The notes under the pieces were generated by a model. It was given only the letters and a program-made list of their open reading frames with translations, ran no database searches and was not told where the DNA came from. From the IMG/VR virus record IMGVR_UViG_3300021142_000163, positions 1-25,789 of that record: a DNA stretch of 25,789 nucleotides; one strand, given 5' to 3'. The DNA is from a virus. Positions 7,938-10,626 of the stretch are shown here, in pieces; within the stretch, counting starts at the first letter, position 1, and each line of letters begins with the position of its first letter. A program made the position numbers and the translations under genes.

Positions 7938-8858
7938 ATGGCCAAACCAATAGAAAACAATTTAACTAAAAAACCGCATAGACGTATGCAAATGACGCAG
8001 CAACAAATTATAGAATTTAGTTTGTGCGCTGATCCCGAAACTGGACCAGATTATTTTTTACGTAATTTCTTTTATATCCAACACCCTACTCGTGGTAGAC
8101 AGAAGTTTGTGCCATTTGATTATCAAGAAGAATTGTTGAAAAATTACCATAATTTTAGATTTAGTATTAACATGTTAGGTCGCCAAATGGGTAAATCCAC
8201 ACTAGCGGCGGGTTACTTGTTATGGTATGCAATGTTTGTAAGTGATAGCACTATTCTTGTAGCAAGTAACAAATATACTGGCGCACAGGAAATTATGCAG
8301 CGCATTAGATACGCATATGAAAACTGTCCAGACCATATTCGTGCTGGTGTTGTTGATTATAATAAGGGCAGTATTACATTTGATAATGATAGTCGTATTG
8401 TAAGTGCTACCACAACCGAAACAACAGGTCGTGGTATGAGTATCTCACTTTTATATTGTGACGAGTTGGCTTTCGTTCGCCCAACTATTGCAAAAGAATT
8501 TTGGACTTCTATTAGTCCTACGTTATCAACAGGTGGTAAGGCAATTATTACATCAACACCAAACAATGACGAGGACCAATTTGCTGATATTTGGAAAGAA
8601 GCAAATAAGAAATTTGATTCGTTTGGCAATGAAACACCGCTTGGACGCAATGGATTTAGTCCATTCTTAGCAACATGGGATCGTCATCCAGAACGTGACA
8701 AAGATTGGGCAGAACGTGAAATGGCTAGTGTTGGCATAGATCGTTTCCGTCGTGAGCATAATTGTTTAGTTGGCGACACAACTGTTAAAATTAAACTTCT
8801 TTCTGGTGAAATAAAACTTATGTCTATAATTGAATTACGAAATTATTTAAGTTCGTAA
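7938..8858 (+). CDS. gp17: Large terminase, N-terminal piece fused to N-intein
   Basis: This encodes the ATPase half of the gp17 packaging motor. Residues 1-275 are terminase, with Walker A GRQMGKST at 81-88, Walker B LLYCDE at 171-176 and the coupling motif TSTPNN at 205-210. The terminase part ends with DRFRREHN. Residues 276-306 are a 31-residue N-intein beginning with Cys (CLVGDTTV), followed by a TAA. The matching C-terminal piece is at 9553-10626, and joining N275 to its C114 gives REHN-CEFIIYDETLIAPG, the normal gp17 sequence at this point. ATG 7938 is preferred because AATAAATA ends six bases before it. In-frame ATGs at 7911, 7920, 7986 and 7992 are alternatives. The piece alone lacks the nuclease domain. 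Confidence 0.9.
   Translation: MAKPIENNLTKKPHRRMQMTQQQIIEFSLCADPETGPDYFLRNFFYIQHPTRGRQKFVPFDYQEELLKNYHNFRFSINMLGRQMGKSTLAAGYLLWYAMFVSDSTILVASNKYTGAQEIMQRIRYAYENCPDHIRAGVVDYNKGSITFDNDSRIVSATTTETTGRGMSISLLYCDELAFVRPTIAKEFWTSISPTLSTGGKAIITSTPNNDEDQFADIWKEANKKFDSFGNETPLGRNGFSPFLATWDRHPERDKDWAEREMASVGIDRFRREHNCLVGDTTVKIKLLSGEIKLMSIIELRNYLSS
8763..8855 (+). other. N-intein of split terminase intein (31 residues)
   Basis: The region encodes a Cys1 block A (CLVGDTTV), an LSGEIKLMSIIEL segment and a short tail. It lacks block B and all later blocks, which are on the C-terminal piece. N-inteins this short are known from atypically split phage terminase inteins; I recall AceL-TerL at about 25 residues. 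Trans-splicing is inferred, not shown. Confidence 0.88.
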
Positions 8859-8872
8859 TTTATGACGAAACA

Positions 8873-8880
8873 AATAAATA
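8873..8880 (+). promoter_or_regulatory. AATAAATA element, 5 bases before HNH ATG
   Basis: AATAAATA is followed by AACAT and an ATG at 8886. The fixed spacing favours this start over the upstream in-frame ATG at 8862, and could give the nuclease its own late transcript. Confidence 0.45.
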
Positions 8881-8885
8881 AACAT

Positions 8886-9575
8886 ATGAAACATTGGCAT
8901 CATATAATACCCAAACACGCTGGCGGAACAGACGACGAAGATAATCTTGTTCATTTAACAATTGCGGAACATGCAGAGGCACATCGAATTTTATTTGAAC
9001 AATATGGAAGATGGCAAGATAGAGTTGCTTGGTTAAGTCTAGCGGGTATAATGAAAGATGAAGAACGAATTTATGAAATTATATCCAATTCCAATAAAGG
9101 AAATCCCTCTGGATGGAGACCGACAGATGGGCAACGAAAGAAAATATCATTGAGTAAAATTGGAGAAAAAAATCCACGATTTGGAAAACCTGCCACAAAT
9201 TTAGGTATCAGCAGACCAGGAATTGGTGGTAGAAAAAAAGGTACTGTGTGGTCCGAAGAAGAAAGAAATACACATGAATTGATTAGAAGTCGTAAAGGAT
9301 ATTATGATTTTACCCAAAAAGAAGAACGAAATAAAAAAATCAGTGAATCTAAAAAAGGTAAAGTCGGAAATGCTGCTGGTAAAACATGGTTCACAAATGG
9401 TGAAACAGAAACATATGCTATCCGATGTCCAAAAGGATTTTGGAAGGGCAGAAATCCAAATAATAAGTCCAATAAAAAAGGATTGTTATGGTTTAATAAT
9501 GGCGAAATAAACAAACAGTATAAATTAGGACAAGAACCAGAAGGATTTACTCGTGGAAAAATTAGTAAAAAATAA
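8886..9575 (+). CDS. HNH homing endonuclease inside the split terminase intein
   Basis: The protein has 229 residues from ATG 8886, the start nearest the domain; ATG 8862 would add eight. The HNH core is at the very N-terminus: KHWHHIIPKHAGGTDDEDNL, then an EHAEAHRILFEQYG segment. NUMOD3-like repeats follow in the middle (GQRKKISLSKIGEKNPRFGK; ERNKKISESKKGKVGN). Two copies of a W-F-(T/N)-N-G module with an EGF- or KGF-type end, at about 165-192 and 200-225, probably bind DNA. It lies between the two terminase pieces, where it would promote spread of the whole split-intein cassette. It is in the same frame as the upstream terminase piece, separated by one stop codon, and its 3' end overlaps the C-intein start by 23 bases. 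Confidence 0.88.
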   Translation: MKHWHHIIPKHAGGTDDEDNLVHLTIAEHAEAHRILFEQYGRWQDRVAWLSLAGIMKDEERIYEIISNSNKGNPSGWRPTDGQRKKISLSKIGEKNPRFGKPATNLGISRPGIGGRKKGTVWSEEERNTHELIRSRKGYYDFTQKEERNKKISESKKGKVGNAAGKTWFTNGETETYAIRCPKGFWKGRNPNNKSNKKGLLWFNNGEINKQYKLGQEPEGFTRGKISKK

Positions 9576-9891
9576 TAAAGATATTGAAATTTGGACAGAT
9601 TTTGGGTGGAGTAAATTTGACGGTATTCTTGAAAATGGAATACAATCCATATTGCTGATTAGATTTGCAAATGGGCAAGTTATACAATGCACCCCAGATC
9701 ACGAATTTTATACAGAAGGGTTAGTTAAAGTTCGAGCACAAGATTTAACCAAAAGCCACAAAGTTATAGTAGATAATCATGAAATTACAAATATAATTTC
9801 TATAACCGAAGAAGCATCTGCTGCGGTATATGATATCTTTAATGTTGAAAAAAATAATAGATTTTATGCAAACGATATATTAGTTTCAAAT
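9553..9891 (+). other. C-intein of split terminase intein (113 residues)
   Basis: It contains block B TPDHEF with T47 and H50, then a strand-rich region, and blocks F and G: AVYDIFNVEKNNRFYANDI and LVSN at 90-113. The terminal Asn and the following Cys are the residues needed for branch resolution. The penultimate residue is Ser instead of the usual His. No endonuclease domain is embedded. Confidence 0.88.
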
Positions 9892-10626
9892 TGCGAATTT
9901 ATCATCTATGATGAAACACTTATTGCTCCAGGCATATTGGTAGATTTAAATGGTATCGACCCAATTGAAAAGCAAGGACAAGTTCGTTGGTATGAAAAAC
10001 CACAGCGTAATCATATCTATATTGTAGCACTTGATCCAAGTCTTGGAACAGGAGGCGATCCTGCTGCTATCCAAGTGTATGATGCTACCTCAATGCGTCA
10101 GGTAGCAGAATGGCAACATAATCTTACTATTATACAAAAACAAGCTGGTATTTTAGCAGAGATTTGCAAATATATTAATGGGATTACTAATGATGCTGGC
10201 AATATCTATTATAGTGTAGAGAATAATAGTATTGGCGAGGCAGCTTTACATGCGATTGCTGATATTGGCGAAGAAAATATACCAGGCAGTTTTTTAAGTG
10301 AACCTGGTGGCGGCGGCCGCCGATTCCGTAAAGGATTTAATACTACACCAAAGAGTAAAATTGCAGCATGTTCTAAATTTAAATTATGGATAGAAACAGG
10401 AAAAATTAAACTTTGCAGTAAAAGTTTAATAAGTGAATTAAAAACATTTGTGGCACATGGTGTAAGTTATCAAGGCAAAGTTGGTGAAACCGATGACCTT
10501 GTTATGGCAACTTTACTGGCAGTTCGTATGATATTGCACTTAAGAATGTATGATAGTAGAATCAGTGACGGATTGGCAATGGATAAAGAAGACATTATAC
10601 CACCTATGCCGTTTGTTGTTTTTTAA
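9553..10626 (+). CDS. gp17: Large terminase, C-intein fused to C-terminal nuclease piece
   Basis: The protein has 357 residues. The start is the GTG at 9553, supported by AGAAGG (9539-9544) eight bases upstream inside the HNH gene. Residues 1-113 are the C-intein, ending VSN before Cys114. Residues 114-357 are the gp17 nuclease domain, with likely metal ligands D161 in VALDPSLG, E223 in YSVENNS and D314/D315 in GETDDLVM. This corresponds to the D, E and D triad of T4 gp17. The nuclease cuts the concatemer during packaging. After trans-splicing with the product of 7938-8858, the mature terminase would have about 519 residues. Neither piece is a complete enzyme alone, so splicing would be essential for packaging. 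Confidence 0.9.
   Translation: MEKLVKNNKDIEIWTDFGWSKFDGILENGIQSILLIRFANGQVIQCTPDHEFYTEGLVKVRAQDLTKSHKVIVDNHEITNIISITEEASAAVYDIFNVEKNNRFYANDILVSNCEFIIYDETLIAPGILVDLNGIDPIEKQGQVRWYEKPQRNHIYIVALDPSLGTGGDPAAIQVYDATSMRQVAEWQHNLTIIQKQAGILAEICKYINGITNDAGNIYYSVENNSIGEAALHAIADIGEENIPGSFLSEPGGGGRRFRKGFNTTPKSKIAACSKFKLWIETGKIKLCSKSLISELKTFVAHGVSYQGKVGETDDLVMATLLAVRMILHLRMYDSRISDGLAMDKEDIIPPMPFVVF

What the first reader, a model, noticed from the sequence alone, without database searches (positions are those of the whole stretch)
7938..10626. Large terminase made by an atypically split intein with a nuclease gene in the gap
Seen: gp17 stops at N275, followed by a Cys-starting 31-residue N-intein and a stop. 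A second ORF starts with a 113-residue C-intein carrying TPDHEF, the VYDI...ANDI block and a final Asn, followed by Cys and the rest of gp17. Joining the exteins gives the normal sequence REHN-CEFIIYDETL. Known: very short N-inteins in phage terminase genes (AceL-TerL type) and fractured genes with nucleases between the pieces have been described. Inference: packaging depends on trans-splicing, and this is a distinct member with an HNH-NUMOD3 nuclease.
Basis: partly seen in the sequence, partly recalled or inferred. Interest (0 to 1): 0.85.

Follow-up and report, generated by a model that had tools for sequence, protein, structure and literature searches.

The report
Phage packaging motor with split intein
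An uncultured phage makes its DNA-packaging motor as two proteins, each carrying part of a self-splicing intein, with a homing nuclease gene between the halves; this type is already known, but relatives suggest that such split inteins repeatedly fuse back into one piece once the nuclease is lost.

Summary
TerL (gp17) is encoded in two ORFs: a 275-aa ATPase half plus a 31-aa Int-N, and a 113-aa Int-C plus the 244-aa nuclease half. An HNH/NUMOD3 gene lies between them. Close relatives have the same terminase uninterrupted across exactly this junction. The Int-C sequence and predicted fold match solved inteins, including the atypically split VidaL and Cat. Int-C and nuclease are under purifying selection, and no intact second TerL was found in the large related contigs or cultured phages checked. 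Trans-splicing is the best explanation; it is not shown experimentally.

The window is a new member of a known kind (AceL/GOS-TerL type; Aeromonas phage PX29 was already annotated this way). At least 60 distinct split forms exist at this site. Two points go beyond what I found described. (1) Five contiguous inteins are nested among split ones; three keep a strong out-of-frame scar of the nuclease's 3' end in their linker and a fourth a partial one, so split inteins appear to re-fuse after nuclease deletion. (2) Some relatives carry three split inteins in one TerL (Walker A, Walker B and this site), giving four polypeptides.

The parts
7938..8762 (+). TerL N-extein (ATPase half, 275 aa, ends RREHN)
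   Evidence: Terminase_6N 2.5e-16; continuous with the C-extein in uninterrupted relatives L006-L017
8763..8855 (+). Int-N, 31 aa, starts with Cys1; stop TAA at 8856-8858
   Evidence: Direct reading; Int-N relatives at the same place in L086, L087 and others
8862..9575 (+). HNH/NUMOD3 homing-type endonuclease gene, 237 aa
   Evidence: Pfam HNH and NUMOD3 just above cut-off; PHROG 655 homing endonuclease 2e-15; dN/dS 0.09-0.11
9539..9545 (+). AGAAGGA, likely ribosome-binding site of the Int-C ORF, inside the nuclease gene
   Evidence: Direct reading; SD-like motif before the Int-C start in 31/60 distinct split loci against 5.9% background
9553..9891 (+). Int-C, 113 aa, GTG start, overlaps the nuclease ORF by 23 nt, ends VSN
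   Evidence: VidaL 5.6e-13 and CatC 3e-11 by family profile; model pLDDT 93.9 matching inteins; dN/dS 0.18-0.27
9892..10626 (+). TerL C-extein (RNase H-like nuclease half, 244 aa, starts CEF) and stop
   Evidence: Terminase_6C 2.6e-7; uninterrupted relatives

Best explanation
The phage large terminase is made as two polypeptides that are joined by protein trans-splicing. Polypeptide 1 is the ATPase half ending in a 31-aa Int-N. Polypeptide 2 is a 113-aa Int-C followed by the nuclease half. The intein pieces associate, Cys1 and Cys+1 carry out the class-1 acyl shifts, the terminal Asn cyclises, and a 519-aa TerL without a scar results. The HNH/NUMOD3 gene in the gap is the mobility gene: it should cut terminase genes lacking the element at this conserved motif, so that the whole block (Int-N, nuclease, Int-C) is copied in. 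Its 3' end also carries the ribosome-binding site and start codon of the Int-C ORF, so translation is probably coupled. Shown here: anatomy, homology, predicted intein fold, conservation, purifying selection, uninterrupted sites, family distribution. Inferred: splicing, cleavage and homing, translational coupling.
For: Joined exteins equal the uninterrupted terminase of relatives residue for residue. Int-C profile finds VidaL and Cat first in the PDB; Int-C model and the model of the contiguous relative L109 match intein structures. In 65 distinct inteins at this site: terminal Asn 65, +1 Cys 65, TxxH 63. Int-C dN/dS 0.18-0.27, nuclease 0.09-0.11. 60 distinct loci share the two-ORF anatomy. 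No intact second TerL in ten large contigs and six cultured phages. Homing-like signs: filled and uninterrupted sites alternate at least 15 times on the extein tree; dS of Int-C and nuclease (0.32, 0.33) below that of the exteins (0.55, 0.90) for window-L086.
Against: No splicing or cleavage has been observed. The usual His before the terminal Asn is Ser here (a family trait: Ser in 43, Lys in 20 of 65). The window is a fragment, so a spare TerL elsewhere in this very phage cannot be excluded. Int-N dN/dS (0.28-0.45) has wide limits because it is only 31 codons.
Confidence: 0.93

Rival explanations
1. Genes in pieces without splicing: the ATPase and nuclease halves work as a non-covalent two-subunit terminase, and the intein pieces are relics. 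Precedent: a ribonucleotide reductase split by a homing endonuclease that works as two peptides (cited in PMC10448857).
For: The break lies between the ATPase and nuclease domains.
Against: Relics would decay: terminal Asn and +1 Cys are kept in 65/65 and TxxH in 63/65 distinct inteins and Int-C is under purifying selection. Other relatives are broken inside the ATPase domain, at Walker A and Walker B, where unjoined halves are unlikely to work.
Confidence: 0.04
2. Assembly or sequencing error, or a dead gene.
For: Metagenomic contig.
Against: L086 and L087, from separate contigs, have the same anatomy at 81-97% protein identity; 60 distinct loci share it; it is also in complete genomes of cultured phages; all parts have dN/dS well below 1, apart from wide limits for Int-N.
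Confidence: 0.01
3. One long protein made by recoding: read-through of the stop at 8856 and a frameshift at the nuclease end give a contiguous intein with an internal nuclease.
For: In the window the N-part and nuclease share a frame and are separated by one stop.
Against: The relative frames of N-part, nuclease and Int-C differ between relatives (L018, L020, L021, L025), so no fixed recoding signal is kept; Int-C has its own start codon and SD-like motif.
Confidence: 0.01
4. RNA-level splicing: a group I or II intron holding the nuclease removes the gap.
For: Phage terminase genes do carry introns with neighbouring homing nucleases, e.g. ICP1 (PMC10448857).
Against: No Rfam family reaches its threshold anywhere in the window; the sequence on both sides of the gap is intein protein with conserved blocks and a predicted intein fold.
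Confidence: 0.01

Closest known systems
AceL-TerL and GOS-TerL atypically split inteins and their consensus Cat (PDB 6DSL)
   Same: Same host protein (TerL), short Int-N (25, 37 and 30 aa against 31 here), split after the first helix, Cys+1 followed by Glu in the 6DSL chain as in the window
   Different: Ser instead of His before the terminal Asn; about 24% identity to CatC in the structural match; whether AceL and GOS loci hold a nuclease in the gap could not be read here
VidaL atypically split intein (PDB 6VGV)
   Same: Best profile hit of the family (5.6e-13) and best structural match of the contiguous relative L109; very short Int-N
   Different: Split after the second strand with a 16-aa Int-N (PMC13014065), not after the first helix
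Aeromonas phage PX29 genes 17A and 17B
   Same: Cultured phage with split TerL, Int-N on one half and Int-C on the other, nuclease between, annotated so by depositors
   Different: GIY-YIG nuclease in the same ORF as Int-C; insertion one residue away in the alignment; T4-like host lineage
Fractured genes with a nuclease between split-intein halves (Dassa et al. 2009; PolB of phage MIJ3 in PMC6892783)
   Same: A free-standing nuclease ORF between the halves of a split-intein gene (for MIJ3)
   Different: HNH/NUMOD3 nuclease, short Int-N, and an overlap with the Int-C ORF; the 2009 paper is not held

Membership tests
Atypically split TerL intein (AceL/GOS kind) | Two separate ORFs, each with an extein half and an intein piece | tested here: met
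Atypically split TerL intein (AceL/GOS kind) | Short Int-N (about 25-37 aa) split after the first helix | tested here: met
   31 aa; in the L109 model the helix is residues 22-30 and the only weak stretch is about 31-40; definition
Atypically split TerL intein (AceL/GOS kind) | Cys1 or Ser1, block B His, terminal Asn, Cys+1 | tested here: met
   C1, TPDH, final N and +1 C in the window; family tally
Atypically split TerL intein (AceL/GOS kind) | His before the terminal Asn (common in inteins, not defining) | tested here: not met
   Ser in the window; Ser 43, Lys 20, His 2 of 65
Atypically split TerL intein (AceL/GOS kind) | Homology to Cat and intein (HINT) fold | tested here: met
   CatC 3e-11 by profile; 6dsl among structural matches of the window Int-C, E 3.4e-6
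Atypically split TerL intein (AceL/GOS kind) | Same insertion site in TerL | tested here: inconclusive
   Cys+1-Glu+2 agree with the 6DSL chain; native flanks of AceL and GOS not seen here
Atypically split TerL intein (AceL/GOS kind) | Protein trans-splicing activity | not testable with these tools
   Needs expression
Fractured gene with homing endonuclease | Nuclease gene of homing type between the two halves | tested here: met
Fractured gene with homing endonuclease | Uninterrupted target sites exist in relatives | tested here: met
Fractured gene with homing endonuclease | Nuclease cuts the uninterrupted target and drives homing | not testable with these tools
   Only indirect signs: patchy distribution and lower dS of the element than of the exteins

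The most novel reading that the evidence does not exclude
In this TerL intein family the split state is the long-lived one and contiguous inteins are derived. After the gap nuclease decays or is deleted, the two halves fuse back into one open frame, sometimes keeping an out-of-frame scar of the nuclease's 3' end as intein linker. This happened at least five times at one site. Some phages stack three such split inteins in one terminase (four polypeptides), so several related split inteins must pair correctly in one cell.
Probability: 0.75. Interest if true: 0.65.

Novelty: new member of a known kind. Interest (0 to 1): 0.52.

Why it matters
Terminase is essential, so packaging in this lineage should depend on trans-splicing. 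The family is a large natural set of short-Int-N split inteins at three TerL sites; Int-N pieces of about 31 aa are useful for protein labelling. Relatives with two or three split inteins in one gene are natural tests of how related split inteins avoid mis-pairing. The contiguous forms with nuclease scars suggest that gene fracture can be reversed, which bears on how split inteins arise and persist. Cultured phages with the same arrangement, including two on E. coli, make the questions testable at once.

Tried and rejected
RNA intron: no Rfam hit in the window. Second intact TerL: none in the large contigs or cultured genomes checked. The first dN/dS run for Int-C was out of frame and was discarded, then redone. 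A scan of bacterial and archaeal genome contigs with the Int-C alignment found no relative. Near-identity search of the window in phage records: no match. Dassa 2009 and two papers on the GOS-TerL and Cat inteins are not held, so comparison with them rests on later papers and PDB sequences. The idea that the split forms arose from the contiguous ones seen here was rejected on tree position and nuclease scars.

Full report
What is there. The window is the whole of a 25,789-bp viral record with no near match among phage records. At 7938-10626 the large terminase gene is in two ORFs with a third between them. The N-terminal half scores as Terminase_6N and the C-terminal half as Terminase_6C. One addition: the Int-C ORF starts with GTG at 9553, inside the last codons of the nuclease (stop at 9573-9575), with AGAAGGA at 9539-9545 as a likely ribosome-binding site.

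Is it more than chance. Relatives in viral contigs with exteins 74-92% identical (L006-L017, mostly 84-92%) have the same terminase without interruption; the N-extein match ends at residue 275 and the C-extein match begins at residue 1 with no gap. The profile of the family's Int-C finds VidaL (5.6e-13) and CatC (3e-11), two solved atypically split inteins, ahead of all other PDB chains. The window's Int-C alone is modelled at pLDDT 93.9 and matches intein structures, including Cat 6dsl. A naturally contiguous relative (L109) is modelled at 94.2 with VidaL as best match, and its weakest stretch is about residues 31-40, which is where the window's Int-N ends. The nuclease scores as HNH and NUMOD3 just above Pfam cut-offs and as a PHROG homing endonuclease at 2e-15.

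Family. A scan with the Int-C alignment listed 80 loci out of 284 relatives. With those of the first scan and two cultured phages, 79 loci with enough flank, 65 of them distinct, have an intein at this TerL site; 60 distinct ones are split. The closest, L086 and L087, share the nuclease too (92% and 89%). Terminal Asn and +1 Cys are in all 65 and TxxH in 63; Cys1 is in all, but was part of how they were extracted. The residue before the last Asn is Ser in 43, Lys in 20 and His in 2, so the lack of the usual His in the window is a family trait and not decay. In 57 of the 60 split loci the frame of the gap gene runs into the Int-C start, with an overlap of exactly 23 nt in 34. An SD-like motif precedes the start in 31/60 against 5.9% background.

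Selection and mobility. Between the window, L086 and L087, dN/dS is 0.18-0.27 for Int-C, 0.09-0.11 for the nuclease, 0.05-0.07 for the exteins, and 0.28-0.45 with wide limits for the 31 codons of Int-N. For window-L086, dS is 0.32 (Int-C) and 0.33 (nuclease) against 0.55 (N-extein) and 0.90 (C-extein). This fits an element younger than its host genes, though the N-extein interval overlaps. On a tree of joined exteins, filled and uninterrupted sites change at least 15 times (9 forced by well-supported branches), and the window, L086 and L087 lie among 11 uninterrupted relatives. I infer homing; cleavage is untested.

No intact spare. Ten contigs of 43-337 kb from the family and six complete genomes of cultured phages with split TerL were searched for the terminase N domain; none has an intact second copy. 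In kaaroe and HY03 the domain itself is in two pieces, and the two matches in the 66-kb contig of L106 are the two halves of one interrupted domain.

Cultured relatives and prior knowledge. Aeromonas phage PX29 carries 17A, annotated 'contains putative N-intein', and 17B, 'contains putative GIY-YIG endonuclease and C-intein'. Providencia phage PSTRCR_127 and Serratia phage 92A1 have a gene between the halves, GIY-YIG-like by Pfam in PSTRCR_127. Vibrio phage EniLVp02 is split with no nuclease. AceL-TerL (25+104 aa), GOS-TerL (37+115) and Cat are described in PMC11766414. PMC13014065 places the split of AceL and GOS after the first helix and that of VidaL after the second strand. By split position, host protein, catalytic residues and profile the window belongs to the AceL/GOS kind; activity is not testable here.

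Re-fusion. Five distinct contiguous inteins sit at this site: L096, L109, L144, L145, and L117 with four identical copies on other contigs. On the intein tree each is a separate tip among split ones, and parsimony needs five changes (a quick tree with few columns, so single forks are weak). Their linkers hold the clue. In split loci the HNH/NUMOD3 nuclease ends ...QPEGFxRGRIxKK, read in the frame one base before Int-C. In contiguous loci that same frame still reads FKENTQPEEFNRGRISKK* (L109), QYREGSQPKGFLHGRINKK* (L117), NNKQFKDGTQPEGFTRGRIRKK* (L145) and NHEGFHRGRISKK* (L096), while the intein now reads through it in its own frame. Scored only on the ten residues before the start codon, L109, L117 and L145 exceed all but about 1-2 in 100,000 windows of the same loci; L096 keeps too little upstream to score, and L144 has no scar. 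L109 against split L092 aligns with one 660-nt deletion and L096 against L151 with one of 543 nt; in L144 the join falls at ACAATA, present on both sides in its split sister L137. The motif also occurs inside the nuclease (CPKGFWKGR in the window), so it is nuclease-derived and the contiguous forms are secondary. L105/L106 show an intermediate, Int-N fused to the nuclease tail with the HNH part gone; L019/L132 and L130 are split with most of the nuclease lost. Caution: L145 has a stop in its N-extein, and L096, L109, L144 and L145 were each seen once.

Several inteins in one terminase. A second site at Walker B (LLY|CDE) and a third at Walker A (GK|T) carry inteins of the same build. L025 and L222/L233 have split inteins at all three, so four polypeptides must be joined. 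L170/L171 have a large contiguous intein at Walker A plus two split ones. L218 has two split ones plus a large contiguous one at a fourth place. Gap genes differ: HNH/NUMOD3, GIY-YIG/NUMOD3, PF24308 (DUF7487) and unassigned. I found no paper in the held library that describes triple splits or re-fusion, but the library lacks several main intein papers, so this does not prove novelty.

Verdict. Observation confirmed; interpretation supported on all points that sequence can test; trans-splicing and homing remain inferences. It is a new member of a known kind, with a family context (re-fusion, stacked split inteins) that is more interesting than the window alone.

Noticed in passing
L096:2554-2982, L109:1063-1518, L117:1934-2404, L145:2221-2673, L144:2037-2432: Contiguous inteins at the same TerL site, nested among split ones; L109, L117, L145 and partly L096 carry an out-of-frame scar of the nuclease 3' end in the linker, pointing to re-fusion after nuclease deletion.
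   Followed up: yes
L025:358-5435; L233:4468-9504 (also L222): TerL encoded in four ORFs with three atypically split inteins, at Walker A, Walker B and the window's site.
   Followed up: partly
L218:4415-10103; L171:4102-7903: TerL genes that mix split inteins with large contiguous inteins; L218 has an insertion at a fourth place (about residue 323).
   Followed up: partly
L171:3262-4098: A second ORF resembling the TerL N-terminal half lies directly upstream of the interrupted terminase.
   Followed up: no
L105:2565-3153 and L106: Int-N is fused in frame to the nuclease's C-terminal tail while the HNH part is gone; Int-C still starts in its own frame.
   Followed up: partly
L260 (KR269718, phage HY03) 1010-3862; L259 (MN850574, phage kaaroe) 757-3868: Cultured E. 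coli T4-like phages whose TerL is split at Walker B with a nuclease-like gene or domain between the pieces; annotated only as terminase and hypothetical proteins.
   Followed up: partly
window 7358-7864 (-): A second HNH nuclease (HNH_5, 6e-16) on the opposite strand directly before TerL.
   Followed up: no
window 3519-4121 (+) and 22839-23390 (-): Two related NUMOD3 homing-endonuclease-like ORFs (both hit phrog_15526 and phrog_314), so the window holds at least four homing-type nuclease genes.
   Followed up: no
window 14033-15346 and 17392-18441: Two ORFs with CxxxCxxC clusters (CNSSCIMC, CNSACQFC) that resemble radical SAM proteins, near the RecA-like gene at 18443-19492; read by eye, not searched.
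   Followed up: no
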